From NCBI GenBank assembly GCA_008330645.1, contig VLTN01000014.1:434001-498000 (forward strand): a DNA stretch of 64,000 nucleotides. The letters run 5' to 3'. The notes under the pieces were generated by a model. That model had not been told where the DNA came from, did not search any database, and was given only the letters and a program-made list of their open reading frames with translations. Below are positions 5,698 to 64,000 of this stretch, one piece after another; positions within the stretch are counted from its first letter, which is position 1, and each line of letters begins with the position of its first letter. A program made the translations under genes and the position numbers. This DNA is from Cafeteria roenbergensis (lineage: Eukaryota > Sar > Bigyra > Bicosoecida > Cafeteriaceae).

Positions 5698-7251
5698 ATG
5701 GCAGCTGCGGCAAGCGCAGGCTCATCATCAACCGCGGCGGCCCGCGCCGGGGGCGACGACGAGCGCGCGGACGGGGCCATCTCGTTCCGCCGCTCGGCGG
5801 GCGCCGCCGCGTCTGCCGCGAGCCCCAAGCCGGGGTCTGGTGAGCAGGGACCAAGGGCGCCACATTGAGGCACGCCCCCGGGGCCTGCGAACACGCGCCA
5901 TTGACGGCAGCGGGGACGGAGGGGGGAGGGGCGGCCTGGGAAGCGCTGCTGGCCAATGCCGCACGCCCCGGCCGAGTCCGCCACGCGGGCTCAGCGGGAG
6001 AGAGAGCGCGCGCGCCCGCGCGACGCCTGCGGGCGGTGGAGTCGGGGAGGGGGCGGGGCGGGCGTCGCAGGCGCCACTGCTTGCCGTGCGGTCCTTGATG
6101 CGCTTGTCCTCGCAGTGGCGGTCTTCAAGTCCTTCGAGGACATGCGCCTGGACAAGGACCTCCTGCGCGGCATCTACGCGTACGGGTTTGAGAAGCCTTC
6201 GGCGATCCAGCAGCGGGCCATTGTGCCCATCGTGTCGGGCCGCAACGTGATCGCGCAGTCGCAGTCGGGCACCGGAAAGACGGGCGTGTTCTCCATCAGC
6301 GTGCTGCAGCGCGTTCGCCGCGAGTCTCCCGAGCTGCAGGCGCTGGTCCTGTCGCCGACGCGGGAGCTCGCTGACCAGAGCCAGAAGGTCATGATGGCGC
6401 TCGGGGACTTTATGAGCGTGACGTGCCACTCGTGCATCGGGGGCAAGAGCGTGCGGGACGACATCCGCGCTCTTGAGAGCGGCGTGCAGGTGGTGTCCGG
6501 CACACCCGGGCGGGTGTTTGACATGATCCGTCGCGGCCACCTCTCCACGCGCAGCCTGTCGATGCTGGTTCTGGACGAGGCGGACGAGCTGCTCTCGCGC
6601 GGCTTCAAGGAGCAGATCTACGACATCTACCGGCACGTGCCGCCCACCACGCAGGTGGTCGTCGTGTCGGCCACGCTGCCCAAGGAGGTGCTGGACATGA
6701 CCAGCCGGTTCATGGCGGAGCCCGTGCGCGTGTTGGTGAAGCGCGACGAGCTGACGCTGGAGGGGATCAAGCAGTTCTTCGTGGCCGTGGAGAAGGAGGA
6801 GTGGAAGTTCGAGACCCTCTGCGACCTCTACGACACCCTCACAGTCACGCAGGCCGTTATCTTCTGCAACACCCGCAACAAGGTGGACTGGCTTACGGCC
6901 AAGATGCGGGAGGCGGGCTTCACCGTCTCGGCAATGCACGGGTCCATGACACAGAAGGAGCGCGACGCCGTCATGGCCGAGTTCCGCTCCGGCGCCTCGC
7001 GCGTCCTCATCACCACCGACGTGTGGGGCCGCGGCATCGACGTGCAGCAGGTCAGCCTCGTCATCAACTACGACCTCCCCACCAGCCGCGAGTTCTACAT
7101 CCACCGCATCGGCCGCTCCGGCCGCTTCGGCCGCAAGGGCGTGGCCATCAACTTCGTCACGGACGAGGACGTGCCCATCCTGCGCGACATCGAGCAGTTC
7201 TATTCCACCGTGATCGACGAGATGCCCATGTCCATCGCGGACGCCCTCTGA
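5698..7251 (+). CDS. EIF4A3: DEAD-box RNA helicase of the eIF4A-III / FAL1 type
   Basis: eIF4A-III is the RNA-clamping ATPase of the exon junction complex; its yeast relative Fal1 works in 18S rRNA maturation. Two exons, 5698-5839 and 6116-7251, encode 425 residues; the junction falls just before the Q-motif region (FKSFEDM). All core motifs are present: GTGKT (99-103), PTRELA, TPGR, DEAD (201-204), [15 protein letters not shown], and HRIGRSGR (377-384). Long matches with eIF4A-III outside the motifs, such as [19 protein letters not shown] and the ending [17 protein letters not shown], favour eIF4A-III over eIF4A-I. The N-terminal 45 residues are Ala/Ser-rich and not conserved. A small oddity is WGRGID where most relatives have WARG(L/I)D. 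The gene converges on the GT32 gene. Confidence 0.93.
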
Positions 7252-44542: not shown

Positions 44543-47500
44543 ATGGCCGATGCTCGTACCCCCAGACCGGCAGCGCCACCTCGGCCAGCAAGGGTCGTGC
44601 CCCATGGTCCGGACACCTGCCCTGTGGCCTCCGGGGCCGCACTGGCGGTGCCCTCTGTGCCCGGCCTGGCATGCTCTGGAGGTGCAAGACAAGTCATTGT
44701 CCCTCGGCCACAGTCAGCCACGGCGGCAGCAGCAGCTATTGTTGAATTTCCGCCTCAAGGCTGCTCCATTCCGCTGTTTGGTGATGTCGCCGCCGGCTTG
44801 GAACGCAGGGCACACCTTTCGCAACAGGAGCAAAAGCAGCTTGCTTCAAACCTCCTTGCGGCTGCCGTCCAGTTGGAAAATGTGTCCTTTGAGACAGTCT
44901 CCGAAGCCGTGGAGACCATTGTGGTCCCACACATCATTGCCGTGTGGGACAGCGTCGGAACTGGCCCATCTTTGCATGCCGCCATGGCAGAGTTTGCTGC
45001 GGCCGGACTGGCGCGCTTGCGCGACGGCGACAAAGCTTGGCGACCGGTGCTCCAGGCCTTGCTGCAACCAGACGCTTTGCTGCAGAACGATCCAGTACTG
45101 CCACATCACTTGGTCATCCTGAGGCTGGTGACCGCTGGGCCCGCAATGAGAGGCTCTCGGCGGTCACAGTGGGCGGAGCTTGTTCTACTGCTCCTGCGCA
45201 AGTGGGAAGCAGACCGCGAGTTCTCGCATTGCAGGCCATTACCGCTCCTCCTTTGCAATGATCTCACTGCGCTTCTTGAACTCGGCTTCGTGCCACAACG
45301 CGTCGAGAGCGCAGCTGCCCCGACAACGGGGCAGGAGCTTTCGGGCGTGCAAGTCGAGCGGCTCAACAGCTCGGACTCGTCCAAGCGCCTCAACCCTCTG
45401 ACCGTCCCGCTGGAAATTCGCTGGACCGATGGCACGCGTGACGTGCTGCTGCCCAGGGCCCGAGACGGCTCCTCCCGGCCGGCTATGCGCACGCCGAAGC
45501 GCACCCTTTGTCACGTGCTCCCAGCGCTGACAAAGCTTGCCGCCGCCACGCGCAACCGATTGCTGGCCACAGTGGGAGATGGCGGCAGCTGCTGCACCTC
45601 ACCCATGATCGGGGCCTCGGCTAGATCCGCAGCAGCGGGAGGGGCGGTGAGGGACGCCCCAACGGCAATGTCTCGGAAGCAGCAAGCTGCCGCGCGCCAG
45701 CTAAGGCAGCTGGACGAGGCCATTGGACAAGTGTGGGGAGCTTTTGACATAATCATTCCAACGAGTGGGGCCGCGTCGCCCAATGCAGAGGTGCAAAGCG
45801 GAGTTGTAGGGGACTGTGTCCGGAACAGCCTGGCATCCCTCCCTCTGGCGCAGGCCGTTTGCACCCTGTTCGGGACCGCTGCGGCCAAACGGCGCGGTGA
45901 CGAACACATCCTTGACGCAGCGCTGCGTGCGCTCGCCGAGCGGAGTGGCGCTTCGTGTGAAAGTCCGGCCTGGGCGGCAGCAGCCAATGCTCTCGTGCGC
46001 TCAGCCTGCCAGCGCGGAGCCGTTTCTGCCAGTTCGTGGGAGAGTCTCCAACGCCAGTTGGTAGGAACCGACGCACAGCCTGCGTCCATCGCAAGCCTCG
46101 AGCTGGCGGTGCTGCTGTGCACCGAGCTGGCCCGCACCACAGCCAAGTTCGTGCACCCGCGTTCCATTGTGCAAGGCGTGAAGCAGCTGCTGGTGATGGC
46201 TGCAAGGCCCGTGACGACGGAATCCTCCGCATTCGTGGGCAAGGCTTTGCAGCTGGTTTGTGCGCTGCGAGACGCACACGGGAGCGGCGCAGTTGCAGCA
46301 TTGGCGTCCTTGCTTCCGACGCTTGCCGCCGGTGGAGGCGCTTCACCAAGTGCCATGAGCTCTCGTGCTTCTGCTGCAGCCGGCGGCGGCGCTAGCCTGC
46401 CCATTGAGTGGCTCTTCGTGCTGATGCTCGCTGAAGCCTCGCGCGGCTTGCACGGAACGGACGGCCTCCGCGAGCTTGCCGGGCGGCAGGGAAGCCCCCC
46501 AGCCCATGGGGAATCGTTCGCCGGGGACGTTTTGACGCACACCATCGCCGCTGTTTGCGCCATGGTGCCTCATCGTGCCAACGAGCTTGTGGCTCGCGCC
46601 TGGGGAGGGGGCATCAGACTGCTGTCAGCACTTGCCAGCGATGCGCCCGACGCGGTGATCCAAGCATTGCGAAGACTCGCCGCTTCAAGCGGCGCCCACG
46701 CAACCGGCGGCACTGGAGCCCCTCTGCTGGGCCGAGCGATCTCGACAGCACTGGCCGATTGCAATTCTCTTCCCGTCGAGACGGCGAGCCATGCCGGCCA
46801 AATCCTCGTTTCGATGTTGAGTTCGGCCGAAGGACTTCAAGCCTTCTGCAGCTGCCTGGACCTGGACGAGCTCCAGGTGTTCTGCGACGTGCCGTTGCTG
46901 CTGAGCTTGGGCTGCTTGACCGAGCGCTCGCTGGGTGGATACTTGCGCGCTCTGCAAGACTTGGACGCAGTTATGGCGAGGGACGGCGCCCTCCCAGCAC
47001 CGACGACTGGTCCGCAATCGCTTGCTGCAGCTGCTTCGGCTCATGGCGGCGCCGGGGCCATGCCGTCGGCTGGAGGCTCGGCAGAGTCCAGCCAGCTTCC
47101 CCTGGCAGCGCAAGCAGGGTGCAACCTTTTGAGCTGTAAAGGACGCCCCTCGCCAAGCACTCCTGCACCGAAAGTGCTTGCTGCTTGCCTCAGGCATTTG
47201 CAACGACTCTTGGCTCATCCTACGTGGGCTCCCGTCGTGGCTGCGCACCGATGGAAACTGGTCGAGTTCGCATTCGAGCCGTTGTTGCACGACCACTTGG
47301 ACGTGCGGCTGGCTGGGGCTGACATCTTGGCCGACGTCCTGCACGCCAAGGGCCTGGGCAGGAAGCGCATCCTTGCAAGCGCGGCCGCCGAGGCCACGTC
47401 TGTCCACGTATTTCAACAGCTTTCGTCTGGCGCCCGGCCCGGCAGCGACGAAGTCGGCGAGTCATCCAGCGAGGCCCACCTCATGTTCCTCGCTGACGAG

Positions 47501-50500
47501 GCGGCAGCACCTGGAGCCGACACGCGGACGCTTGGCAGGGCGAGTGCGGCTGGGCTCTTAGCTACAACAAAGGCTGTTGAGGAACTGCAACGTGCAGCGC
47601 GTGCCGGGGGGCGAGGTCCGAGCGTCTCGCACAGCCTCGGTCTGGGCGAGACCGAGCCAGGGCCCAGCAGTGGCTCGGGCAGTCATAGCCGCCAAGAGGC
47701 GGGCGGAATGGAGCTCACGCCGTCCACGCAAAAGAACCTGGACAGCGTGCTCGAGGCAGTTGAAAATCCTGTGCCCTTGCTGCTACAAGGGCCAACTGGC
47801 GTCGGGAAGTCAAGCACAGTTAAGCTGGCGGCAGCTTTGAAGAGTCCGCGGCCCTTAATCAGGTTCAACATGAGCGCAAACGTGTCCGTTGATGACTTCT
47901 TCGGCAAGGTCGTGCTGCAAGCTGCCGCCGGCGGAGGAGAGATCCCGGCTTTCCAGGAGCAGCCATTCACTGTCGCCTTTTCCCGGGGCCACTGGCTCCT
48001 ACTGGACGAGATCAACCTCGCAAAGGATGACGTTCTGCAGCCCATGGAAGCGGCGCTTGACAGCGGCGTGCTCTTCGTCAGAAACCCGGCTTCGTCCGTG
48101 GAATCGTACTTGGAGTACAAGATGCACCCGGACTTTCGCCTGTTCTTCACCCAGAATCCGGCCTCAGGCGAGTTCAAGGGCAAGCGCCAAGTGCTGTCGG
48201 AGTCATTCTTGTCGCGGTGCGTGCCCTTGGCCTTTGAGGAGCTCCCGCCCGACGAGCTTCGCCAAGTAGTGGCAGCCCAGATGAAGCGCACCGAGGAGGG
48301 GCTGATGCTCGGCCACGCTTCCACGAGCTGGGAGCCCTTTGCGGCAGCAGCCGTCAAGCTCTTTCTCGACTTTCGGGCGCTGACGTCTGCCAACCACTTC
48401 CCCGAAAAGCGAGGCTACGCGGCAGTGACCGTTCGTGACTTGCTCAAGCTTTCGACATCTATTGCTCACAGCCTGTGCTCCCCCGCCAACAGCGCTGTCA
48501 CGACGAAGGCAGAGCAAGTTCAGCCGCTGCTTGCGTTTGAGGCCTGGTGCGTGTTTGGCGCGAGGTTCCGCACTGCACGAGCCCGCGGCCTGGTGCACAA
48601 TTTGATCGTGCGCGCCTACGCCACGGTGGCGCCGGCTCTGGCCGACTGCTCTCTCGAGGTGCAGAACGCCCAGCTGGTGTTCGGGGACTCGCGCTCGGAC
48701 GCCGCGCCTCGCGTGTTTGTGGAGCGGCGGCGGCCCGGTGGCACGCTGGGGGCGGGAGCGGCATCCTCATCGTCCCCAGATCAGGCGCTGGTTGTCGAAG
48801 AGATCCACGCGGCATTTGACCAGGCCCTTCGCGGGTCGCCAGCGCCAGACTGCAGTCTCCCACCCGCTGTCGCGCGCCGAGTCTGCGCCGCGCACGCTCG
48901 CCTGTGCGCGTCATTGACATCAGCTCGCGTGATGGACCAGTGTGGCCTGTACATGCCCGACGCCAGGTGGGTGTACCTGTGGATGCTTGCCCTCTGCGCA
49001 GCGTTGCCCGCCGATGGGCCACCTCTGGCCGACGCCCAGTGGGCGGCTCTGGCGGCAGCGTGCGGGGCGGCGACCTGGGGGCGGCTTGTGCGCCACCGCA
49101 TCGCTAAAGATGCGGCGCAAGCGGCCGTGGCAACGGCCTTCGCAGCTGGGGCGTGCGACTCGCCTCTTCCGCCCGAGGCAGCCGCTGTGGTGGAGAGCAT
49201 CACCCCTGATCGCCCCTTTGCAATAACCGCCCGAGTGATTTGCTTGTGGCGGCAGATCGCTCGAGCTCTTCGCCAGCAGCTTCCGATTCTCGTCGTGGGC
49301 CCCCTCGGTTCGGGGAAGAGCAACGCAGTCAGGGCCCTGGCGTTCCTCCTGCGCAGGGCCGTCGTCGAGTCTTGCATCACTCCCGAGACAGAGCCGGCCG
49401 ATCTGGTCGGACAGATGGCGCCCAACCCCTTGTTCAGAGCTGGGCGCATGTCTCGAGCAGACAAGGAGCCCTGCGGAGGTGCGGCCGCAGCAAGCGCGGC
49501 CGAGACTTCGGCACCCGCACTCGCAGCTGCAGCGCGCAGCGAGGACGAATTTGCCTCTCGTGTTGCCTGGCTGGACGGTGTCGTCACTGCAGCGCTCGCG
49601 GACACGGAGGGGGTCTTCCTGCTGCTCGACAACATCAACACTGCCGACGCGTGCGTCCTTGAGCGCCTTAACCCGCTCCTTGAGGCCGAAATCGACTGGA
49701 CAGTGACTGAGAACGGCGAAACCACGCCGCGCTCGGTTCCTTCGGGTCTGCGAGTTGTGTCCACGATGACTCCACCGGCCCCGGGTACTCCCCTTGCCCG
49801 CGCTGCGGCCCTGGAGCTCAGCCCGGCCGTAGCCAACCGCTTCGACATCGTGTACCTGCCGCAGCTCGGAGAAGGCGCCCTGCCATGTGCCGGCCTCGAT
49901 GGCGCTCGCGCCGCCGCTGCGGCAGCCCCCGTGGATGATAGCCACCCGGACCTGTTGCGGGACGAGCTGAACAGCCTGGTTCGCTGCACATGGGGCGACG
50001 CTTTGGCCGGGCGCGTCGATGACGACCTGAGCAAGCTCGTCCGGGCTGCCATGGCGTTTTGGGAGACAGGAGCGTCAACCACGGCGAGCACTGTCCGCTT
50101 TGACCGCTTCACGCTCCGGACAATCGTGCAGTGGTTCGATGCGGCCTTTCTGCACTCCATTCGGCGGCCCGGCGAAAGCCTCGCGGCAACTGTCTGGCAC
50201 GTGTTCTGCTCAGTCGTGCTTCGGCAGTTGCCCCAGGATGCAGCAGGGGCTTCATCGCTGAGGGCCAGCCTCTTTGAACGCGTGGCAGACGCCTTGGGCA
50301 TCGATCCCGCTCGGCCTCCTCTCCCAGTTATCGACGAGTCGGTGGGCAGAGTCAATGCCACTGGGGAGCACGTCCTCTCGGGCAGCCGGCTCGAGCTCGC
50401 GGGCGGAGTCATGGCCTCCGTCCTTGCCAACCAGCCTGTTCTGCTCGAGGGCCCAGCGGCAACCGGCAAAACGTCGCTTGTGAGTAGTCTCGCGAAGGCC

Positions 50501-56500: not shown

Positions 56501-59500
56501 GGGACTTTTGAGCACTCGGTAGAGCAGCTTCACCAACAAGGTTCGGCAGTTCCGAAGCTGGAGCTGGACGCTTTCGCGATTTCTCACTCGTGGCTTGCGG
56601 GCGTGTGGCATTGCCTCCCGGACCAGATGGCGCTTGTGGCGCGCCAGCAGGACGTTGCAGCTGAGTCAACCTCCGCCAGTGCGAGCGACATCCCGACTTT
56701 GCGGCAGCTGGCGAAGTGGGAATCGGATTTGGAGCTCGAGTTTGCAGCTGATGAGGCAATTACGCTTTCGGCCACGGTCTGCGAGCTGCTCCAGCGGTCG
56801 GATTGGTCATCATTGCAGGGGATCAGGACGATGCAACAGGCAGCGTCAGGTTCGAAACTGCTTCTGCAGTCGGCTCCCTCAGTCTGCGCACGGCTTGCAA
56901 AAGACGTGTTGTCCAGATTTGCCGCGTGTCTTGGCGAGGTGCAAAACACCGCGTCTGCCGGAGCGATGGTGCCAGTCTCGGAGCGCGTGCAATCGACAGC
57001 GTGTGCCACTGCGCTACGCCGGCTCCATCAGCAGGCCGCCTGCACACCGTCGCTGGACAGCCAGACCTTGGTCCGGCTGGCCACTGCCCTGTCGAGCACC
57101 TCAGTTGTTGCATGCCTTCCACAAGGCTGCCAGCTTGCAGTCTGGTCTCCCAGCGGAGCTGTTGCCGCCGATGGTGGGCCAAGGTCTGGAGGGCCCGACA
57201 AGTCTTGCACAATTTGGTTTGTGCTGGGAGCAGCGGTGTCCGGGCAGATCAAGCCGTCCGCTCCCATGCTGACGATGCAGCTGGAGGGCATTGTGTTGGC
57301 TTTGCGACACTCTCACGCCCCGTCCTCTTGCGCGCGTGTTGCTGCGCTGCACTGTGGTTCTGGGTACTCTGAAGCACTTAAGAAGGCTGCACGGGAATGC
57401 TGTGACAGTGAATCAGCCCTCGTCGGACCAGAGGTACCACTTGGGTTCAAGGAGGTGCCCCTGGATGCCGGGCCGTCTGGAGCACTTCGCCAAGTGGAGT
57501 GGGAAGCAATCTGCCTCGTTGCACATTGTCTTGGCATCATGGCTGCGGCACCATTCCTCGCATCGTCCCACAGGGACGCACCGCTCCCATCCGCGAGGCA
57601 GCTCTGGACGGACACAGACTCAGCGTTGCCCGTGGCAGGCGTGACCGCGGTCGGAAGGAGTAGCGAGGACAATGACGAGGAGACTGGCTACAGCCCTGTG
57701 CTGTGCAAGTGCACCGTGCAGCTCCTGGACGCCATTCGATGCAGCTCTTTGTCCACCACCAGCGACTGGAAATCACACGATGTCGAGGCTGCAGCCGGTA
57801 GAGTCGCTCGCGCGGCCGAAGCAGTCGAGCACCTTCGCGGAAGCCGAAACCTCGCAACGGCGCAAGACAGTCTGCAGCGCAGCCTTCCCACCTCAGCTGC
57901 ATCTGTTGCAGACCTCATTCGGGTGCAGCGGAGCCTGGTGGCACAGGGCCGCATGCCTCGCGTCACCATGGTTCTCGCAGACTGGCTGAGCAAAGTCACA
58001 GGCGGAAGCGCCTACGCAGGCTCGTCAGGCAACGGGCACTTGCTTTTTGCAGCACTCTCCGCTTTTGCTGGAGTGAGGACTGCCGGTTTGGTCCTCGCCG
58101 GCGCGGCATCCCTCCGCGCTGCTTCGCTCCTGAACAACGGAGACGCGGATGGCGCTCATCGGCTGTGGACTTGTTCGCAACGGGACGCGGCAAGGTTCCG
58201 CGAGGACGTACACGGCGCTGTGTCCAGAGCGGTCAAGATCGACTTCGCGGCCCCAAATGCTTGGCTCGACTCGAGGGTGGGCGGGGTGGAGTTCTTTCGC
58301 CAAGTTCAAGCAGTCGTTTCGGACATGATGCGAACAATGGGGATTCGCGAATCCTGCATCAAGTCCCGCGGCTTCGACAAGCTCTTCGAGGAAGCGCAGT
58401 GCCTCTCAGCGCGCTCACAGTCTGATGCTTCTCAAGAGCCTCTCGAGCCTCTGATCATTGCGAGGTCGGCAGCCCAGAACATGCTGCTTCAGCGGCTGGT
58501 GCGCCTGAGCAAGCGTGTCGCCAGCTCGCTCTCAAAGGCACGCACGATGGCAGCCGCCCCTGGGTCCCTCTTGGTTGGCCTTGTGGACAAGCTATCGTGG
58601 CTGCGGTGGGCGCAGGACGCTGTCGAAGCCTCGGATGCCCTTTCGATGGAGGACGAGTTTCGTGCCCAAGCGGTGCATGCCGAGGAGCTGATGAAGCAGG
58701 CCTCTTTGCTACGGGCTCAAGCCAACGCTCGCGACCCGTTGCGAACTGAAGTTGGGCACCTGCTTTGGCTCGAAGAGCAGTTCAATGGGCTTGCGCAGCC
58801 CGACGAGGTGGCCCACGCACGAGCGAAGCCAGCCTGGCGAGAGCTAGAATCAATGGTTCGAAGCCTGCACGAGGCCGCCGTCGGGCGCTCCGTTCGCGAC
58901 GGCGACGGCGCGGGCAAGCAGCCAGCACTGCTCAACTCTTTCCTCTCTGGGTCGTCGGACCTGGGGAGGTGGCAATACACCCTTCGGCTGGCACTTGAGC
59001 CCAGCACCACGGCTGCCATGGCGGCAGCTGGGCATGGGTCCGCAGCAGCTCGCGCTGGAGGCGCTGATGTCGCGTTCAACGTCACAGCCGCAGTTTCTGT
59101 CCTTGAGCCAGACCTCGCAGTGCAGATTGCAGCTGCTGGAGATCAGTCGGGCCGCGTGCCTCCTGCAATCGTGAAGCAGTTGCTGCGCCGATTCGCCGAG
59201 TTTCGGCACAAGGGTTGGACACGGTCCGCAGAGCTTGCGTCTCACTCCTCGCGTTTCAAGCTCTTGGCTGACGAATGTGAGGGCGCCCGCTGCGCAGTCA
59301 AAGGACGTACCATCCCCACTTCGACGCTTGAGGCATTCAGTCGCGCCGAAGCTGCCCAAGCGCGTTGCAACTCGCTGGACCGTTGCATTGCAATGGCAGG
59401 CACCGGCACCAGTTGCGCGGTTGAAGCTCCAACTATGGGGCTCAGTGACGTCATAATTCTCCTCCCCGTTGCTCATGACTCGGCCTTGGAGCGGCTGTGC

Positions 59501-62500
59501 AAGTGGGACCTACGAGCGTCTGCCTGGCTCGGCGAGCGCAGTTCGGATCCGCCGGCCTTTCGTGCGCACCGAGAGGATGCAGACTTCGCGGATCAGCCCT
59601 GCTGCGTGCACCAGGCCCTGTGTGGACTTCCAGGCGATGCAGCGTGGGCCACGGCATTGAGCTCAGCCGCTCAGTCTGGCGCGGCCGCACTTGCCAACCA
59701 CGCCTTGAGCAGCGGAGATCGCGTCAAGATTGCTCCTCGACTGTCAGACGATGTTGGCTTGCAGCTTGGACTGGCCACCTTGACGGCAGGGCTCGCCGGG
59801 AGCGTCTGTTTGGCTCGACTGGAACAAGCTGCAATCGACAGGTCGGCGTTGCTGGACACTTTGTGCGTGGAGCCAGGAAGCGATGTTGCACTCGCCGAGG
59901 CAGACGTGAGGCTGGCCATTGCGACAGCAGGGCGACTCGCCGAACCAGAAGCAGCTTTTCTCGAGAGCGACCTGTGGACGGGAGTGGCTTCCTGGCAACC
60001 CAGCGAGTTTGCTGACCATATCCATGACGACACTGAAGCGCTCGCTCGCGAAGCCCAAGCTATGGTTGAAGAAGCCACCACCCGTCTGCAACGCGCACAA
60101 GATTCGCTGGTCCGGGAGGCAGTATCAAAGCAGTCAGCTGCCTCCGCGGCTGTCAGCGCCGCAGTGTTGGGCTTGCTGTCTGCGTTCCGACATTGTTGCG
60201 GTGCATCCATGCAAGGTATGTGGGGCGCAGGAGCAGCGTCGGCGGCGGGAGCAGCGTCGGCGGCGGGAGCAGCGTCGGCGGCGGGAGCAGCGTCGGCGGC
60301 GGGAGCAGCGTCGGCGGCGGGAGCAGCGTCGGCGGCGGGAGCAGCGTCGGCGGCGGGAGCAGCGTCGGCGGCGGGAGCAGCGTCGGCGGCGGGAGCAGCG
60401 TCGGCGGCGGGAGCAGCGTCGGCGGCGGGAGCAGCGTCGGCGGCGGGAGCAGCGTCGGCGGCGGGAGCAGCGTCGGCGGCGGGAGCAGCGTCGGCGGCGG
60501 GAGCAGCGTCGGCGGCGGGAGCAGCGTCGGCGGCGGGAGCAGCGACAAGCGATGCGCTTCACGCCGTCCTGCGTGATGGTCCGCAAGGGCTCGAGCGAAT
60601 TGTGGCCCTTGTTGTGAGAGCTGCCCGACAGGGCGACACCCTTGCGCCGTGGGGCTTGTGCACACTTGTCGCTTCTGCCGAAGCTGTGCGTCGAGAAGTC
60701 AGGCAGCAGCTGAAGGCTGCGAACCAAGCTGTGGCGGCAGCTCTGCAGCTGCTCAAGCGCGATTCGAGGCTCTGCCAGCAAGTGGAGTGGCTTTGGACCG
60801 CAACTCAAGTTGCATTGGGGTATGGCTGCGGCGTTCTTGATCATGCAGCGACGCTATGCAGCACCTTGTCGTCAAGCAGTGTTGACGCAAGTGGCACTCG
60901 CAAGAAGTTGCTCGCAACAGCCGATGCTGGCGAGCAGCTTCGGGCGGACTTGGTTTCTGCGTGCTCGGACATCCATTCGCTTGTGACAGCGCCAAGTATG
61001 GATGGTGCATCTGCGGATCGAGCTGTCAAGCGGATAGAAGCAACGGTCGCCAAGTTCGACAGCTCTCATCGCACCGCTTCCGCCAGGGTTTCTGGCGCAC
61101 CGCGTCTGTGGCTGGCAGCTGTGGATGCGACGCGCACATTTGTCGTTTGCCTAGCATTCCTGGGGGTCGGGTGCCTGTCACGTGGGCCGGTAGAGAACGA
61201 AGTCGCAGCAGGCGCCATGGAGCGTCTTCGGCAGAGCCTCCCAGATGCGGGCCTGCACTGGCAGAGGCACAATCCGGCAACGAACTGGCGGAGTGAGTAC
61301 GCACGGCTCCATGCACAGCAGGCTTCAATGGAGGATGCTTGCGTGAGAGTCTTGACTCGCTGTGGCTCGGAGCAGACCAGTGTGACTGTCTTCGAGCTTC
61401 GGTGGGCACTGGCGCAAGCGGCGGGGGCGCCTACGAGCGCGGGAATGGGCAGCGCGTTCGTGGCTAGGGTGCTGTGCACAATTGGGCTTCCAGAGGCTTT
61501 GAAGGTGTTTCGTCGCTCAGTCGCTTCAGAGCAAGAGCCTGTTCATTCAAGCTTGTTGCAGCTTGCCAAGGCCATGAAGTCGCTCAACGATGCAGCGTTT
61601 TCATCCCTGTCAGTCGCTGACCGAGAAGTCGTGCTTGCAGCCTTCGGCTCGACCGGAGGCGGCGAGCGTCGGGACGACCAGTCTACAGAGGCGCGTGCTG
61701 CCCTGGGCACGCTTCAGGCGCTCTGGACCGCCCGCTGCACCCTTGTGCGCGCGTCTTTGCAAGTCCAAGGAGACGGCTGCGTGGCAGGCGGCTCAGCTAT
61801 TCTTCAATCGCTCTTGATTGCGGTCAACGCCATGATTCACGAGCTTGTCTTCGAGCTGACCGCAATGCCAGACTGCGCAGTGCACCCACCACCTATCACA
61901 GATGGAGATGTCTGCAGCGACGCCCTATTGGCTGCGCCAGCAGATGAAGTCTGCCCAGGCCTACCCACAACAATTTTTCCCGGACTCCAACTCGTGCACT
62001 TCGCGCCTGCTCATTGGGAGGCGACGCGTGAGGCGATAGCCGACCAGCTCCTCAGAGACAAGGCATCTTCCGGGCTCGTGGCAGAAGCTTGGAGAGCTGC
62101 TGAACGCTGCCGGGCCGTGTGGAGCGTCAGCACCGCAGCTTGGAAAGCTGCGCGGGTGCGGATGCGTCGGTTGGCTCAGCTGGGTGCCGACCCTGCTATT
62201 TCTTCGCGCCTTGGAGCCCAGCTCGTCAGCTGTGCCACTCGGACGAGACTGTCGCACGCCACCGGCATGGGAGCCGGAGTGTCGGTTGGTGAGGCTTGCG
62301 GTGACGAGGCGATGCAGCTGGTCGCACACGAGTCCCTCGTCGGGCTCTCGGAGTCCTTCAGGCTGCACGCAGCACAGCGGATTCGCGACGACCCGGTTGC
62401 CGCTGTGCTAGCGGGGCTGGCCAACGACTTGGAAGAGTGTGCCGACAGCTTCAGTCGTGCACTTGACGAAGCTGTTGGCTGCAGGGAAATCGACCGTCGG

Positions 62501-64000
62501 CACGGCCACGCGAGTCAATGGGGTGCCATGGGGACAGGGCAAGCATCGTTTGCGGAGCAGGAGCGTGCCTTGACCGAGCAATCATTCCGGCAGGTTGAGG
62601 CCAGGCGTCGATGGGAGGAGTGCACGACCGGGCTTGCCGATGATTTTTTGCTCATTTGCGAACGGTTGTTGCGCACTTGGAATCGTCTTCCTCGGGAGCA
62701 GCACTTGCTCGCAGTGAGGCTGGTGACAGGAAACCTCGATGGGTTGAACCCGCCACGAGCTGGGCACTTTCGCTGCTGGCGCGTCTTGGCGCTCGAGCTC
62801 CGTGAACCCATCAAGCTGTACAGCCCACGCTCCATGCCCGGGTTTGAAATCACTGTCAGTGCAAGCAACCAACACAACGTCTGGGACAGTTTCACAGCCC
62901 AGCTTCCTCGAGCTGGAATCGCAGGCGAGCAGTGTAGCCACGATATTCCTTTGGAGACCACGACGCTGTGTATCCAGCCGAAAGGCTACGAAGCGGTAAC
63001 GATGCGTTTGCCTCGCCAAGGCGGCGAGCTGACGTTTGAGACGACCGACTGGGCACTTACCGTTTGCATTTCGGTTGTGGACGAGCTGTCGATATCGGAC
63101 CCAACCGGCGTGTTTGCCTCAGACGCAAGCTCGGCCTTTCACGGGACTTGCGCGCCGACCGTGCACTCCGACGGTGGTGCAGCTGCCGACCACGAAACAC
63201 AAGATTGGCATCAGCGAGCGTCGGCTCTTGCCGAGTGCGCGGCACGCCTCAATGCAGCAGTGCGAGCGCAGCCGCCTGTTGCGAGGCTGTACCAGCCGCG
63301 AGCTTTCCCACCCGCCAGGCATCGTTCCAATCGCGGGGCAGCTGCGCTTCCCGACAACAGGCAGCGCGAAGCTGAAGACCGGCAAGCAGCCATTGCATTG
63401 CAGTCCATCGTCGTTGCCAAAGAGCAAGCACGTGCCATGGAGGAGGTGCTCCGGGCAGCCACGGATGTTCCTTCTGGGCTGGGCCTCCGAGTCGCACGCG
63501 ATGTGGCTGGAGGTCTGGCCACGCTTGCCGCCCGCCTCCGAGCATCCGCAGCCCCTCCTGCCGACAGGCGGTCACGAGTGCGATGGACAACTGGCATGCA
63601 AGCCTCTGCTGAGCGCGCGCTTGCAGCTGCGGGTCAAGCATGCTCCTTTGTGGGGAAGTGGCTAGCGGGAATTGCGGTCACAAGCTCGCTTCAACTCGCT
63701 GCGCTTGCAGCTGCTGCATGGACCCCGCGGCTTCAGCTGGAAGTCGAGGAGGCCACGAGGAAGTTTGGGAAGCTGCTGAAGTTTGTCACCCAACGCACGC
63801 CCCCAGACGTGTTGCGCGGCCACCTGGGGGCAGTGTGGGGAACGGCTCGTCCAGCCACAGTTCTTTCGGCCTTGGCAGACTTGCACCGAGCCGCCGAGGA
63901 GTGGCAAACCGAGCTGCAGCTATGCCTTGAGCGCTTGCCAGCCGACGTGACCGCCACACCCAGCCCAAGGAGGCTCTTGCAGTCTATTGGGCTTCGAGCG
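44543..64000 (+). CDS. giant midasin-like (dynein-related) AAA+ ATPase, 3' end outside window
   Basis: One uninterrupted frame of 6,486 codons, still open at the right edge. The first in-frame ATG after the stop at 44486 is used. Six AAA modules are recognisable. Walker A positions are 1083 (GPTGVGKS), 1586 (GPLGSGKS), 1970 (GPAATGKT), 2313 (GPTSCKS, degenerate), 2947 (GPPGAGKT) and 3329 (GPACSGKT). Walker B-type motifs are DEIN 1155, DNIN 1696, DEFN 2039, EDFD 2655, DEVN 3017 and DNVN 3534. Strings such as TQNPAS and LSESFLSRC are typical of the midasin/dynein-related AAA_5 family. Midasin (Rea1/MDN1) remodels pre-60S particles. Here the leader before AAA1 is about 1,080 residues, against roughly 300 in midasin. 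No Asp/Glu-rich region or MIDAS domain has appeared in the 2,800 residues after AAA6. Orthology is therefore uncertain; it may be a divergent paralogue. Confidence 0.85.
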   Translation, partial: MADARTPRPAAPPRPARVVPHGPDTCPVASGAALAVPSVPGLACSGGARQVIVPRPQSATAAAAAIVEFPPQGCSIPLFGDVAAGLERRAHLSQQEQKQLASNLLAAAVQLENVSFETVSEAVETIVVPHIIAVWDSVGTGPSLHAAMAEFAAAGLARLRDGDKAWRPVLQALLQPDALLQNDPVLPHHLVILRLVTAGPAMRGSRRSQWAELVLLLLRKWEADREFSHCRPLPLLLCNDLTALLELGFVPQRVESAAAPTTGQELSGVQVERLNSSDSSKRLNPLTVPLEIRWTDGTRDVLLPRARDGSSRPAMRTPKRTLCHVLPALTKLAAATRNRLLATVGDGGSCCTSPMIGASARSAAAGGAVRDAPTAMSRKQQAAARQLRQLDEAIGQVWGAFDIIIPTSGAASPNAEVQSGVVGDCVRNSLASLPLAQAVCTLFGTAAAKRRGDEHILDAALRALAERSGASCESPAWAAAANALVRSACQRGAVSASSWESLQRQLVGTDAQPASIASLELAVLLCTELARTTAKFVHPRSIVQGVKQLLVMAARPVTTESSAFVGKALQLVCALRDAHGSGAVAALASLLPTLAAGGGASPSAMSSRASAAAGGGASLPIEWLFVLMLAEASRGLHGTDGLRELAGRQGSPPAHGESFAGDVLTHTIAAVCAMVPHRANELVARAWGGGIRLLSALASDAPDAVIQALRRLAASSGAHATGGTGAPLLGRAISTALADCNSLPVETASHAGQILVSMLSSAEGLQAFCSCLDLDELQVFCDVPLLLSLGCLTERSLGGYLRALQDLDAVMARDGALPAPTTGPQSLAAAASAHGGAGAMPSAGGSAESSQLPLAAQAGCNLLSCKGRPSPSTPAPKVLAACLRHLQRLLAHPTWAPVVAAHRWKLVEFAFEPLLHDHLDVRLAGADILADVLHAKGLGRKRILASAAAEATSVHVFQQLSSGARPGSDEVGESSSEAHLMFLADEAAAPGADTRTLGRASAAGLLATTKAVEELQRAARAGGRGPSVSHSLGLGETEPGPSSGSGSHSRQEAGGMELTPSTQKNLDSVLEAVENPVPLLLQGPTGVGKSSTVKLAAALKSPRPLIRFNMSANVSVDDFFGKVVLQAAAGGGEIPAFQEQPFTVAFSRGHWLLLDEINLAKDDVLQPMEAALDSGVLFVRNPASSVESYLEYKMHPDFRLFFTQNPASGEFKGKRQVLSESFLSRCVPLAFEELPPDELRQVVAAQMKRTEEGLMLGHASTSWEPFAAAAVKLFLDFRALTSANHFPEKRGYAAVTVRDLLKLSTSIAHSLCSPANSAVTTKAEQVQPLLAFEAWCVFGARFRTARARGLVHNLIVRAYATVAPALADCSLEVQNAQLVFGDSRSDAAPRVFVERRRPGGTLGAGAASSSSPDQALVVEEIHAAFDQALRGSPAPDCSLPPAVARRVCAAHARLCASLTSARVMDQCGLYMPDARWVYLWMLALCAALPADGPPLADAQWAALAAACGAATWGRLVRHRIAKDAAQAAVATAFAAGACDSPLPPEAAAVVESITPDRPFAITARVICLWRQIARALRQQLPILVVGPLGSGKSNAVRALAFLLRRAVVESCITPETEPADLVGQMAPNPLFRAGRMSRADKEPCGGAAAASAAETSAPALAAAARSEDEFASRVAWLDGVVTAALADTEGVFLLLDNINTADACVLERLNPLLEAEIDWTVTENGETTPRSVPSGLRVVSTMTPPAPGTPLARAAALELSPAVANRFDIVYLPQLGEGALPCAGLDGARAAAAAAPVDDSHPDLLRDELNSLVRCTWGDALAGRVDDDLSKLVRAAMAFWETGASTTASTVRFDRFTLRTIVQWFDAAFLHSIRRPGESLAATVWHVFCSVVLRQLPQDAAGASSLRASLFERVADALGIDPARPPLPVIDESVGRVNATGEHVLSGSRLELAGGVMASVLANQPVLLEGPAATGKTSLVSSLAKASSGGVKLLERVNIQDGTTTADFVGSVLPFGNSLVHEVGALVRAMERGSWFVADEFNLADPDVVAMLAPLLEGRGYLVIPGVATGLSGRRNRKSVFAHPGFRFFATQNPASYANRNKLPASLRSRFVEAQVEAFTESEIGEILARRRTSPLPGVPSPSAGVAPDCSALAKVFVAISSDAVRDVPPMSMTMREMVKWRRRLAMLPATSASPAAAGLSLLASRLDPETTAHAALAAKLNDVFELASIRPETSASIEATGATGAVFRLDGVSLPVDGVRLDASPLTHHLSWGVARGAGVSSAPSELPKSFVRALVQLVFATQAREPVLLVGPTSCKSLLVETWARLFGKLEALQTVHLTADTEAAALIGQVQPFTRVSAFLQASQLVKSLAARMEAHAGVARGATAAQLEKLLDAASSLERSASLVQKQMAEIAAAAADDGDVASDGERNAEEARADALVDELALLAPAFDPEDPKAWAAAGSMPDFSVSTTQTPTSAQFSSAVASGAGAAAAAVLDGDNDEDEEDEEEEEEEEEEGTGAMLSAALLRYQCETAELAREASALEQAHLTRESLLALLPDEVQDQSIRASKRVRAPREAIKASIEIEAAMDRLCELHASLQADGAIAVLRSKVGALLLQLTGDEQDLSSSTPVFLFKDGPVTSAARRAQPVLLEDFDQPSQAVTERLNSILEPDPELTVVEDSTASLAAGARATAPGAIPVLPGFQLFATSHEVSRTRGSRLSPAARSRFTEIFVPAYSRGDVLAIMKTHLRKGLEQARAEECAEALDQLFRMLQLGDSLGGTHVDVTLQHSLRLCRFMVSAEGSLVHDWRRRALIGARFVLVDGLGPAAAARVLLEWVRSCFARASGVDDLAAFAGELCAEPSPACKRAATLFRPLVNDDGIVAGVSLAFGSTAMQLATPFPSVQEAVSHFEQATQSVQLTSTLVTNMARIFAAAASKSPLLLVGPPGAGKTLAVLQTAKLVGVACARINCSQSITVEQLFGSIMLVVRNGVRVFEWQDGSITRALRAGCWVLLDEVNLCPPEVLDALSPLLQHSDRRIPIPGHPGMDGSQFVSASSGRVLGTMNPASVGGNRGRLPRSIANLFTRVQLSECSEDELLEIAQCLFQELLPHPDPSSGRYVAITPKQLQNVFEAHLEIAKLVNDRSVGVAGGRHALNMRDLAKLRDVLRGTSRDFADHCRLLVDLPSERGRNTSTQAASGGDPQGTPAGSLARSGRTSSDHRALALRRCAELVYSAQFPDPDDQARICKALAKALPLSPELSLLASTLSADTSFPSILRVGTVFMQMESEAESARSAPVPLVHTSSTLARLERLGAAIQSERGILLEGPACSGKTALVTELARLAKRTLVVIPLHMDTEVSDLIGQWQPVYRAADDSAALLESSELLERSMVDVIGLAGPWLCRSDTPEQNSAFMRVIQCIKTCTLLQGTAALDSLSLGTDLDLPADASRMQRALAAAKLLLVQCMDLRRLSGRNALPRWVASELVAAERKLRRWRAQAKREVEQAARHELAFRFVESPLVNAVRNGHWVLLDNVNCAPPDVVERLNSLLEEDPVLGLHEHADGEELTRANGGVHPRFRIIACANGQRPEAHKLSGAFLNRMLRIWLAPLDAGLAEVDGSEAGAKALDAHDATAITAFAFADVVGGQQVARLLALAHGKAKKCFESSPLLAGHGFPITFRNLLNAAKFARHLVEQGRSPTAAAAAGFIRNYVAGVEPQEGRARLLGELVCVLKSPAVVSATSSVSTGASQRAAGPQAMVQGLQLAMREIEAAVIASLLYEAESHPSSAARGAILRGVAAGLQAGLNAPDLSRVVSSRLGAENDSAAAKEIRGAAFGSRASIPPVRGETELAAAALLPARQSKAKIHRLLCMSSSLDAGHTAALLHRVERSCLHLSNVLAFVKENLEAEGVASAEGSSLGALFAACRQVLRTLGVSTASRPWRTVATSHGVLACRARLLSALEASHSNAAAFALHQALTCPLPSALGTFEHSVEQLHQQGSAVPKLELDAFAISHSWLAGVWHCLPDQMALVARQQDVAAESTSASASDIPTLRQLAKWESDLELEFAADEAITLSATVCELLQRSDWSSLQGIRTMQQAASGSKLLLQSAPSVCARLAKDVLSRFAACLGEVQNTASAGAMVPVSERVQSTACATALRRLHQQAACTPSLDSQTLVRLATALSSTSVVACLPQGCQLAVWSPSGAVAADGGPRSGGPDKSCTIWFVLGAAVSGQIKPSAPMLTMQLEGIVLALRHSHAPSSCARVAALHCGSGYSEALKKAARECCDSESALVGPEVPLGFKEVPLDAGPSGALRQVEWEAICLVAHCLGIMAAAPFLASSHRDAPLPSARQLWTDTDSALPVAGVTAVGRSSEDNDEETGYSPVLCKCTVQLLDAIRCSSLSTTSDWKSHDVEAAAGRVARAAEAVEHLRGSRNLATAQDSLQRSLPTSAASVADLIRVQRSLVAQGRMPRVTMVLADWLSKVTGGSAYAGSSGNGHLLFAALSAFAGVRTAGLVLAGAASLRAASLLNNGDADGAHRLWTCSQRDAARFREDVHGAVSRAVKIDFAAPNAWLDSRVGGVEFFRQVQAVVSDMMRTMGIRESCIKSRGFDKLFEEAQCLSARSQSDASQEPLEPLIIARSAAQNMLLQRLVRLSKRVASSLSKARTMAAAPGSLLVGLVDKLSWLRWAQDAVEASDALSMEDEFRAQAVHAEELMKQASLLRAQANARDPLRTEVGHLLWLEEQFNGLAQPDEVAHARAKPAWRELESMVRSLHEAAVGRSVRDGDGAGKQPALLNSFLSGSSDLGRWQYTLRLALEPSTTAAMAAAGHGSAAARAGGADVAFNVTAAVSVLEPDLAVQIAAAGDQSGRVPPAIVKQLLRRFAEFRHKGWTRSAELASHSSRFKLLADECEGARCAVKGRTIPTSTLEAFSRAEAAQARCNSLDRCIAMAGTGTSCAVEAPTMGLSDVIILLPVAHDSALERLCKWDLRASAWLGERSSDPPAFRAHREDADFADQPCCVHQALCGLPGDAAWATALSSAAQSGAAALANHALSSGDRVKIAPRLSDDVGLQLGLATLTAGLAGSVCLARLEQAAIDRSALLDTLCVEPGSDVALAEADVRLAIATAGRLAEPEAAFLESDLWTGVASWQPSEFADHIHDDTEALAREAQAMVEEATTRLQRAQDSLVREAVSKQSAASAAVSAAVLGLLSAFRHCCGASMQGMWGAGAASAAGAASAAGAASAAGAASAAGAASAAGAASAAGAASAAGAASAAGAASAAGAASAAGAASAAGAASAAGAASAAGAASAAGAASAAGAASAAGAASAAGAATSDALHAVLRDGPQGLERIVALVVRAARQGDTLAPWGLCTLVASAEAVRREVRQQLKAANQAVAAALQLLKRDSRLCQQVEWLWTATQVALGYGCGVLDHAATLCSTLSSSSVDASGTRKKLLATADAGEQLRADLVSACSDIHSLVTAPSMDGASADRAVKRIEATVAKFDSSHRTASARVSGAPRLWLAAVDATRTFVVCLAFLGVGCLSRGPVENEVAAGAMERLRQSLPDAGLHWQRHNPATNWRSEYARLHAQQASMEDACVRVLTRCGSEQTSVTVFELRWALAQAAGAPTSAGMGSAFVARVLCTIGLPEALKVFRRSVASEQEPVHSSLLQLAKAMKSLNDAAFSSLSVADREVVLAAFGSTGGGERRDDQSTEARAALGTLQALWTARCTLVRASLQVQGDGCVAGGSAILQSLLIAVNAMIHELVFELTAMPDCAVHPPPITDGDVCSDALLAAPADEVCPGLPTTIFPGLQLVHFAPAHWEATREAIADQLLRDKASSGLVAEAWRAAERCRAVWSVSTAAWKAARVRMRRLAQLGADPAISSRLGAQLVSCATRTRLSHATGMGAGVSVGEACGDEAMQLVAHESLVGLSESFRLHAAQRIRDDPVAAVLAGLANDLEECADSFSRALDEAVGCREIDRRHGHASQWGAMGTGQASFAEQERALTEQSFRQVEARRRWEECTTGLADDFLLICERLLRTWNRLPREQHLLAVRLVTGNLDGLNPPRAGHFRCWRVLALELREPIKLYSPRSMPGFEITVSASNQHNVWDSFTAQLPRAGIAGEQCSHDIPLETTTLCIQPKGYEAVTMRLPRQGGELTFETTDWALTVCISVVDELSISDPTGVFASDASSAFHGTCAPTVHSDGGAAADHETQDWHQRASALAECAARLNAAVRAQPPVARLYQPRAFPPARHRSNRGAAALPDNRQREAEDRQAAIALQSIVVAKEQARAMEEVLRAATDVPSGLGLRVARDVAGGLATLAARLRASAAPPADRRSRVRWTTGMQASAERALAAAGQACSFVGKWLAGIAVTSSLQLAALAAAAWTPRLQLEVEEATRKFGKLLKFVTQRTPPDVLRGHLGAVWGTARPATVLSALADLHRAAEEWQTELQLCLERLPADVTATPSPRRLLQSIGLRA
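52030..52102 (+). other. acidic tract inside AAA4 of the giant ATPase
   Basis: Asp and Glu codons, mostly GAG and GAC, form a run of about 20 acidic residues (about residues 2500-2520). It lies between the degenerate Walker A and Walker B of AAA4, within a helical insertion that separates these motifs by some 340 residues instead of the 70-110 seen in the other modules. Confidence 0.75.
60232..60537 (+). repeat. perfect 17 x 18-bp in-frame minisatellite
   Basis: Seventeen tandem copies of an 18 bp unit (gcggcgggagcagcgtcg in one phase) appear identical, with partial copies at both ends. In the giant gene's frame each unit reads Ala-Ala-Gly-Ala-Ala-Ser, adding about 102 residues (about 5230-5332) to the helical linker. 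There are no spacers, so it is not a CRISPR array. Perfect identity implies recent expansion or homogenisation; read collapse could also have altered the copy number. Confidence 0.92.

What the first reader, a model, noticed from the sequence alone, without database searches (positions are those of the whole stretch)
44543..64000. Single-exon giant AAA+ ATPase of more than 6,486 residues with a non-canonical midasin plan
The sequence shows one frame open over 19.4 kb with six AAA modules of midasin/dynein-related type. Established midasins have about 300 residues before AAA1, compact AAA modules, then a linker, an acidic region and a MIDAS domain in about 5,000 residues. Here there are 1,080 residues before AAA1, uneven module spacing (503, 384, 343, 634 and 382 residues) and 2,800 post-AAA6 residues without an acidic region. 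It could be a very enlarged MDN1 or an undescribed AAA ring family. The absence of introns is also striking, since several smaller genes nearby have them.
Basis: partly seen in the sequence, partly recalled or inferred. Interest (0 to 1): 0.8.

Follow-up and report, generated by a model that had tools for sequence, protein, structure and literature searches.

The report
Giant midasin-related AAA ring with four VWAs
A marine flagellate carries, besides its ordinary ribosome-assembly motor midasin, two even larger relatives of that motor whose ATP sites and gripping domains are arranged differently; the one in this window is about 9,280 residues long and ends in four metal-binding grip domains instead of one.

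Summary
The open frame is real. It continues 8.4 kb past the window edge and encodes 9,283 residues in one uninterrupted frame. It has six AAA modules of the dynein/midasin type and four C-terminal VWA domains with MIDAS motifs. It is not the organism's midasin: the same genome has a separate, canonical MDN1 on contig C90. A second giant on contig C11 (12,912-codon frame) is a colinear paralog, module by module. The ring is midasin-related: independent assembly is rejected by the AU test (p 0.008; SH p 0.092 does not reject), position-wise kinship with midasin is allowed (p 0.25). VWA2 carries the midasin pre-MIDAS/MIDAS block. Several midasin features fail: hydrolysis motifs sit in AAA1/3/5 rather than AAA2-5, AAA2 lacks the long H2 insert, there is no acidic region, and two more VWAs follow the MIDAS domain. 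Verdict: a midasin-related paralog pair, undescribed as far as my searches go; a new variant of a known kind, probably a pulling machine for a target other than pre-60S ribosomes. In passing: Omnitrophota bacteria have giant frames with six AAA modules, one also with a midasin-type MIDAS block.

The parts
44543..64000 (+). 5' two thirds of the giant gene (residues 1-6486 of 9,283); the rest lies on the same contig to window-scale 72394, outside the window
   Evidence: open frame; continuation and stop codon
44543..47704 (+). N-terminal region before AAA1 (residues 1-1054), no Pfam family over its cut-off
   Evidence: residues 1-1052, Pfam at E<=1: one match, E 0.031, below cut-off; no similarity to the C11 N-terminus found
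47705..48595 (+). AAA1 module: P-loop GPTGVGKS (47789), Walker B LLLDE: hydrolysis-competent by motif
49220..49942 (+). AAA2 module: P-loop GPLGSGKS (49298), Walker B LLLDN (catalytic Glu replaced); no long H2 insert
50375..51082 (+). AAA3 module: P-loop GPAATGKT (50450), Walker B VADE: hydrolysis-competent by motif
51440..52942 (+). AAA4 module: degenerate P-loop GPTSCKS (51479), 343-residue Walker A to B distance including a GAG-coded Glu run (52052-52095), Walker B LLED
53300..54097 (+). AAA5 module: P-loop GPPGAGKT (53381), Walker B LLLDE: hydrolysis-competent by motif
54440..55702 (+). AAA6 module: P-loop GPACSGKT (54527), Walker A to B 205 residues, Walker B LLLDN
55703..64000 (+). post-AAA6 linker (continues outside the window to about residue 8,100), no Pfam family over its cut-off, not acidic; followed outside the window by VWA1 (MIDAS strand at residue 8168), VWA2 (8582), VWA3 (8850) and VWA4 (9086)
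60230..60544 (+). perfect 18-bp minisatellite, 17.5 copies, in frame, coding (GAASAA)n inside the linker
   Evidence: translation

Best explanation
The gene encodes a midasin-related mechanoenzyme that is a paralog, not the ortholog, of MDN1. Six AAA modules in one chain form a ring. A long linker carries a C-terminal cluster of MIDAS/VWA domains that binds the substrate. ATP hydrolysis in the ring moves linker and grip, pulling the substrate out of a larger complex. Shown here: the six modules, the four VWAs with MIDAS motifs, a colinear paralog (C11) with the same active-site pattern, a separate canonical MDN1, and sequence kinship of ring and VWA2 with midasin. Inferred from motifs: only AAA1, AAA3 and AAA5 hydrolyse ATP; AAA2 and AAA6 bind without hydrolysing; AAA4 does not bind. 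Inferred from anatomy: the target is not the pre-60S ribosome, because the AAA2 H2 insert that recruits Rea1 through Rix1 is missing and MDN1 is still present; several MIDAS domains would give a multivalent grip or a choice of UBL-like ligands.
For: AAA_5 over the ring and midasin as top PDB hit, 341.8 bits for 4,819 residues; 1,179 residues of the canonical MDN1 alone score 678 bits, so this protein is far more divergent. MDN1 on C90 has an acidic region (D+E up to 0.37 per 200 residues), the GKRLNM..IWLRR pre-MIDAS block and a final MIDAS domain. C11 aligns colinearly over AAA1-6 and VWA1-3; in the tree all six C14 modules pair with their C11 counterparts at UFBoot 99-100. Both paralogs share DE at AAA1/3/5, DN at AAA2/6 and GPT[SA]xKSLL plus E-D/E-N at AAA4. 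Module profiles find their own position best in fission yeast Mdn1 (6or5) for AAA3, AAA4 and AAA6, and the best stretch of both single-sequence searches is AAA5 on AAA5. Independent origin of the ring rejected by AU (p 0.008), position-wise kinship allowed (p 0.25). VWA2 profile: best PDB hit is midasin, E 7e-6, over the pre-MIDAS block and MIDAS. In Rea1 the AAA2 insert contacts Rix1 and sits in the pore (PMC6286127, passages); MIDAS-UBL bonds are catch bonds (PMC8837202, passages).
Against: AAA1 and AAA2 profiles match midasin AAA5/AAA3 and AAA4 better than midasin AAA1 and AAA2. Against the organism's own MDN1 the positions are less clear: C11 AAA5 scores 98.2 bits on AAA3 and 97.4 on AAA5, C14 AAA1 scores best on AAA3, and C14 AAA6 best on AAA2 (MDN1 AAA1 and AAA6 are degenerate). 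By my own arithmetic (no call), 4 or more of 6 matching positions with three same-parity choices each has a chance of about 0.10. The SH test does not reject independent origin (p 0.092), and deep nodes of the tree are weakly supported. The VWA2 profile scores another VWA protein, NDE1, almost as well (E 1.7e-5), though only over the VWA part. Linker and N-terminal regions show no detectable similarity to the own MDN1 or even to C11 (the MDN1 N-terminus was not in that comparison). No expression, biochemical or structural data; function is inferred from homology.
Confidence: 0.68

Rival explanations
1. It is the organism's own MDN1, only enlarged and rearranged.
For: Midasin is the best PDB match of ring and VWA2; Pfam midasin lid PF17867 is found over its cut-off.
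Against: A separate gene on C90 has the canonical MDN1 features: far higher similarity, acidic region, GKRLNM pre-MIDAS block and final MIDAS, Walker B DE at AAA2-5 and degenerate AAA1/AAA6, as described for Rea1 (PMC6286127, passages).
Confidence: 0.03
2. It is a second, specialised ribosome-assembly midasin (subfunctionalised MDN1 paralog) working on pre-60S particles.
For: Ring kinship with midasin and a midasin-type MIDAS block; the neighbouring gene at 42048-43748 is a BMT5-like rRNA methyltransferase, weak context.
Against: The AAA2 H2 insert that contacts Rix1 in Rea1 (PMC6286127, passages) is reduced: Walker A-B distance 110 (C14) and 63 (C11) against 299 in the own MDN1; different active sites; no acidic region in C14; extra VWAs.
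Confidence: 0.15
3. A ring family assembled independently from MoxR-type AAA modules and fused to VWA domains, converging on midasin (as the six-module rings of Omnitrophota giants may have been).
For: C14_3/C11_3 and C14_5/C11_5 group together in the ML tree, weakly (48.4/46); Omnitrophota modules cluster by parity within themselves; SH test does not reject (p 0.092); C11 AAA5 is tied between MDN1 AAA3 and AAA5.
Against: AU test rejects monophyly of all 12 C14/C11 modules (p 0.008); AAA3, AAA4, AAA5 and AAA6 match their midasin positions best in the PDB searches; VWA2 with the pre-MIDAS block.
Confidence: 0.14

Closest known systems
Midasin (MDN1/Rea1)
   Same: six AAA modules in one chain, long inserts in AAA4 and AAA6, AAA6 Walker B with DN as in the Mdn1 chain 6or5, long linker, MIDAS domain with the pre-MIDAS block
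   Different: hydrolysis motifs at AAA1/3/5, no long AAA2 insert, no acidic region, four VWAs instead of one, 9,283 residues, 1,082 residues before the first P-loop; coexists with a canonical MDN1
C11 giant of the same genome
   Same: colinear AAA1-6 and VWA1-3, same active-site pattern, 42-46% identity in AAA1, 2, 3, 5 and 6 and 35% in AAA4 (second half only for AAA4 and AAA6)
   Different: longer frame (12,912 codons), moderately acidic stretch before VWA1, apparent intron within VWA3 and no VWA4 found in the 10-kb stretch L011, GC3 0.90 against 0.68
Omnitrophota giant open frames (L031/L045, L026)
   Same: six AAA_5 modules in one frame in two genomes; L045 also has a midasin-type pre-MIDAS block and MIDAS
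   Different: bacterial; all six Walker B sites DE; modules cluster by parity within the bacteria; one VWA motif found in the L045 stretch, none by pattern in the L046 stretch; frames of 8,314 and 48,300 codons
Bdelloid rotifer 7,479-residue protein with partial midasin similarity (PMC7943196, passages)
   Same: a giant protein with weak, partial midasin similarity, described as of unknown function
   Different: domain plan not reported in the passages seen; not compared here
Dynein heavy chain, VWA8, RNF213
   Same: AAA modules of the same clade; dynein and RNF213 have six-module rings (recalled)
   Different: Pfam dynein models AAA_6 and AAA_7 pass their cut-offs on the AAA modules, Dynein_heavy does not, and no other dynein-specific family is seen; no RING found by Pfam; VWA8 has fewer AAA modules (recalled)

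Membership tests
Midasin (MDN1/Rea1) | six tandem AAA modules of the dynein/midasin type | tested here: met
   (AAA_5, seven stretches because modules with inserts are split)
Midasin (MDN1/Rea1) | AAA2-AAA5 active, AAA1 and AAA6 without Walker B (PMC6286127, passages) | tested here: not met
   AAA1/3/5 DE, AAA2/6 DN, AAA4 degenerate P-loop; the own MDN1 shows the canonical pattern. AAA6 alone agrees with midasin in lacking the catalytic Glu
Midasin (MDN1/Rea1) | helical H2 inserts in AAA2, AAA4 and AAA6 (PMC6286127, passages) | tested here: not met
   Walker A-B distances 110/343/205 (C14), 63/465/232 (C11), 299/367/258 (own MDN1) for AAA2/4/6: AAA4 and AAA6 met, AAA2 not
Midasin (MDN1/Rea1) | D/E-rich region before the MIDAS domain | tested here: not met
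   max D+E per 200 residues 0.14 in C14, 0.23 in C11, 0.37 in own MDN1
Midasin (MDN1/Rea1) | MIDAS domain with upstream pre-MIDAS block | tested here: met
   VWA2 profile against PDB: midasin best, E 7e-6, NDE1 next at 1.7e-5 over the VWA part only; but VWA1 precedes and VWA3-4 follow it
Midasin (MDN1/Rea1) | linker homologous to Rea1 stem/middle/top | tested here: inconclusive
   no detectable similarity of the linker to that of the own MDN1 or C11; fold not predicted
Midasin (MDN1/Rea1) | the only MDN1 candidate of the genome (orthology) | tested here: not met
   canonical MDN1 on C90
Midasin (MDN1/Rea1) | acts on pre-60S via UBL substrates Rsa4/Ytm1 | not testable with these tools
   needs experiment
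Dynein heavy chain | dynein-specific domains (linker, stalk/microtubule-binding domain, C-terminal region) | tested here: not met
   Pfam: AAA_6 and AAA_7 over cut-off on the AAA modules, Dynein_heavy below cut-off, no other dynein family
RNF213 | RING E3 module next to the AAA ring | tested here: not met
   no RING family in Pfam
VWA8 | single-VWA protein with fewer AAA modules (recalled) | tested here: not met
   six AAA and four VWA; a separate three-AAA candidate lies on C67, not examined further

The most novel reading that the evidence does not exclude
Eukaryotes, or at least some protists, possess a second branch of the midasin motor that split off before midasin's AAA1 site decayed. 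It fires ATP at alternating sites (AAA1/3/5) instead of AAA2-5 and grips cargo through a cluster of up to four MIDAS domains; its bacterial counterpart is found in giant proteins of Omnitrophota, so that the six-AAA plus MIDAS plan is older and wider than ribosome assembly.
Probability: 0.27. Interest if true: 0.82.

Novelty: new variant of a known kind. Interest (0 to 1): 0.6.

Why it matters
Midasin is generally treated as a single-copy ribosome-assembly motor (recalled). A genome that keeps a canonical MDN1 and two relatives with larger frames, a different set of active sites and several MIDAS grips offers a natural test of which ring sites, inserts and grip domains midasin needs for pre-60S work, and points to other cargo for this kind of pulling machine. 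The bacterial giants found on the way bear on where the six-AAA plus MIDAS plan came from.

Tried and rejected
Rejected: 'own MDN1' (C90 is MDN1). Rejected: dynein, RNF213 and VWA8 membership (Pfam and domain count). A sequencing or chance artefact is rejected by the 9,283-codon frame, codon periodicity and the colinear paralog. Looked for relatives in viral contigs with the AAA1 and VWA2-3 alignments: 27 and 69 pattern matches, 0 confirmed. Looked for similarity of N-terminus and linker to C11 (both) and to the MDN1 linker: only low-complexity noise. A run of Ig-like (ASH/MSP-like) domains at residues about 6,490-7,200 was suspected by eye; Pfam at E<=1 gave only fn3_5 at 0.052, so it is not claimed. 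NCBIfam gave only sub-cut-off matches. The 18S search failed; the species is inferred from assembly statistics. The active-site reading rests on motifs only. No eukaryotic sequence collection was on hand, so spread among protists is untested. Print searches for such paralogs: 12 of 12 papers listed; 15 of 27; 12 of 25; 12 of 92; 1 of 1; 3 of 3; none of the listed titles and abstracts describes a six-AAA protein with several VWAs. Passages were looked up in PMC7159879, PMC11573180, PMC6286127, PMC10066038, PMC2674469, PMC2837639, PMC6431247, PMC7943196 and PMC8837202; PMC7203096 had no occurrence of midasin in the held part. PMC6431247 reports midasin homology in a giant planarian retrotransposon ORF.

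GC3 values and periodicity were recounted.
Full report
WHAT IS THERE. The window is stretch 434001-498000 of contig C14 of a 36,303,456-bp assembly in 167 contigs. With the next stretch of that contig the frame runs to a TAG at window-scale 72394 and gives 9,283 residues. About 247 stops would be expected by chance in that many codons. GC at codon position 2 is below position 3 in 58 of 62 windows of 150 codons. Overall GC3 is 0.68, against 0.90 for the frame of its paralog C11. The assembly statistics agree closely with Cafeteria burkhardae (then C. roenbergensis) strain BVI: 170 contigs, 36,327,047 bp, 70.1% GC (PMC6972860, passages). The species is therefore inferred, not shown: the 18S search failed twice.

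ANATOMY. Pfam AAA_5 matches with E 6.4e-102 and seven stretches, and the midasin lid PF17867 passes its cut-off. After the ring come about 4,400 residues without a Pfam family over its cut-off and without an acidic region (max D+E 0.14 per 200 residues). Outside the window the chain ends in four VWA domains with the motifs DNSGSM (strand at 8168), DASLSM (8582), DVTGSM (8850) and DESYSM (9086), each followed by a TD or SD loop. Pfam VWA covers VWA4 (E 3.8e-18), and the best stretches of VWA_4 and DUF1194 fall in VWA3 and VWA2, below or near cut-off. VWA1 has no Pfam stretch of its own; it rests on its motif and on C11 VWA1 (64.6 bits), which Pfam does recognise (E 2.2e-11).

NOT THE ORGANISM'S MIDASIN. 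The same genome has a canonical midasin on contig C90: an 8,473-codon frame, with an upstream frame that apparently carries a diverged AAA1 as a separate exon (splicing not shown). A 1,179-residue piece of it scores 678 bits against the Mdn1 chain 6or5, while 4,819 residues of the window protein score 341.8 bits at best. (That 6or5 is fission yeast Mdn1 and 5jcs budding yeast Rea1 is recalled; the listings say Midasin.) C90 has the acidic region (up to 0.37 D+E per 200 residues), the pre-MIDAS sequence GKRLNMRRVVGYIASGFRRDAIWLRRTKPSKRTYQ and a final MIDAS, Walker B DE in AAA2-5, and degenerate AAA1 and AAA6. That is the pattern described for Rea1 (PMC6286127, passages).

A PARALOG PAIR. A third giant on C11 (12,912-codon frame) aligns colinearly with the window protein over AAA1-6 and VWA1-3. 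Module identities are 42, 44, 46, 35, 42 and 44% for AAA1 to AAA6, the AAA4 and AAA6 values being for the second half of the module only. In a tree of 38 module sequences (6 C14, 6 C11, 6 own MDN1, 6 from 6or5, of which AAA5 and AAA6 only as second halves and AAA1 incomplete, 12 from two Omnitrophota frames, 2 from one further bacterium) all six C14 modules pair with their C11 counterpart at UFBoot 99-100. Protein searches of the genome with the VWA regions found only these two loci at E<=0.001; they did not pick up MDN1's own MIDAS, so more distant ones could be missed. The AAA_5 search scored 23 places of 128 candidates, so its counts are lower bounds.

RELATION TO MIDASIN. Profiles of the C14+C11 pairs were compared with the modules of 6or5. 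AAA3, AAA4 and AAA6 profiles find their own position best: 87.8 against 78.5 bits, 47.7 against 20.1, 51.0 against 38.0. In single-sequence searches the best stretch is AAA5 on AAA5 for both paralogs. AAA1 matches AAA5 (100.7) and AAA3 (84.8) better than AAA1 (30.1), and AAA2 matches AAA4 (78.1) better than AAA2 (27.6 and 21.4 in two pieces); in both cases the parity is kept. Against the organism's own MDN1 the picture is less sharp: C14 AAA5 prefers AAA5 (89.0 against 78.6) and C14 AAA3 prefers AAA3 (96.7), but C11 AAA5 is tied (98.2 on AAA3, 97.4 on AAA5), C14 AAA1 is best on AAA3 (96.3) and C14 AAA6 best on AAA2 (73.2). After removal of MDN_1, MDN_6 and POM_1 (35 sequences left), the AU test rejects a tree in which all 12 C14/C11 modules form one clade (p 0.008; KH 0.010; SH 0.092, not rejected) and allows position-wise grouping with midasin for modules 2-6 (p 0.25). 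The VWA2-3 pair with its upstream block has midasin as best PDB match (E 7e-6) over the pre-MIDAS block and the first part of the MIDAS domain; the VWA protein NDE1 follows at 1.7e-5 over the VWA part only. So the protein is midasin-related at both ends, in the same order.

DIFFERENCES THAT MATTER. (a) Active sites: DE Walker B at AAA1, AAA3, AAA5; DN at AAA2 and AAA6; AAA4 with a shortened P-loop GPT[SA]xKS and E-D or E-N, the same in C14 and C11. The DN at AAA6 is shared with 6or5. (b) Inserts: Walker A-B distances in AAA2/4/6 are 110/343/205 in C14, 63/465/232 in C11 and 299/367/258 in the own MDN1. The AAA2 insert of Rea1, which sits in the ring pore and contacts Rix1 on the pre-60S particle (PMC6286127, passages), is therefore reduced. 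(c) No acidic region in C14, a moderate one in C11. (d) VWA1 before and VWA3-4 after the midasin-type VWA2; VWA3 carries a DAPCHG motif of the alpha-kinase VWA kind (recalled), shared with C11; VWA4 is seen only in C14.

HOW IT MOST LIKELY WORKS. In the published model for Mdn1 the MIDAS domain holds UBL domains of assembly factors by catch bonds and tension through the linker helps to extract them (PMC8837202, passages). The same logic with three alternating hydrolysing sites, no AAA2 plug and several MIDAS grips suggests an ATP-driven remodeller of another large complex with UBL-like or acidic-loop ligands. Shown: domains, motifs, paralogy, separate MDN1. Inferred: ring assembly, pulling, which sites fire, the target. 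The intact Walker B at AAA1, which midasin lacks, suggests that the split is old; this is an inference from one site and is not dated.

BACTERIAL RELATIVES SEEN ON THE WAY. A scan of the prokaryote collection with the AAA1 pair gave 71 pattern matches, of which 9 were confirmed. Two Omnitrophota genomes have six AAA_5 modules in one open frame, of 8,314 and 48,300 codons. The first also has a midasin-type pre-MIDAS block and MIDAS. With that block as query, 110 of 193 genomes of the phylum have a match at E<=0.001. In the listed rows, which were cut, most matches lie in frames of about 330-400 codons, as expected of ordinary VWA proteins, and 11 of 193 genomes have a match in a frame of 2,500 codons or more. 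Three of those loci read here (L048, L049, L050, the last in a 1,206-codon frame) show the pre-MIDAS block by eye. The presence of AAA modules was tested in only two genomes. [quoted passage not shown]

STATUS IN PRINT. Searches listed no description of such a protein among the papers shown (lists cut in 26, 81 and 82); only open-licence PMC papers are held. A bdelloid rotifer protein of 7,479 residues with weak midasin similarity is mentioned in PMC7943196 (passages). Protein records for this species probably exist in GenBank (recalled), so the sequence itself is not new; its nature seems undescribed.

Noticed in passing
L031/L045 (G001:C45), L026 (G002:C26): Omnitrophota bacteria carry giant open frames (8,314 and 48,300 codons) with six AAA_5 modules; the first also has a midasin-type pre-MIDAS block and MIDAS domain. 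Possibly a bacterial counterpart of the midasin plan.
   Followed up: partly
193 genomes of the phylum of G001: In the listed rows (list cut) 11 of 193 genomes have the MIDAS-block match inside frames of 2,500 codons or more, up to 35,009 codons.
   Followed up: partly
G000:C90:48116-76915 (-): The canonical MDN1 of this organism is itself enlarged (8,473-codon frame plus an upstream frame with AAA1), with an acidic region of about 1,000 residues before the MIDAS domain.
   Followed up: yes
G000:C79:1694-2110 (-): AAA_5 match with the same score as one on C90 (87.4 bits) near a contig end: possibly an allelic or duplicated fragment of MDN1.
   Followed up: no
window 60230-60544: Perfect 18-bp minisatellite (17.5 copies, 100% matches) inside the coding frame, coding Gly/Ala/Ser repeats.
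   Followed up: partly
window 42048-43748 (+): BMT5-like rRNA (uridine-N3) methyltransferase gene directly upstream of the giant gene.
   Followed up: no
window 44543-64000 against C11: The window gene has GC3 0.68 while its paralog C11 has 0.90; most of the upstream part of the window is also GC-richer. Cause unknown.
   Followed up: no
L009:1-2400 (residues 6487-7286): Beta-rich stretch that looks like several Ig-like (ASH/MSP-type) domains by eye; Pfam does not support it (fn3_5 E 0.052).
   Followed up: partly
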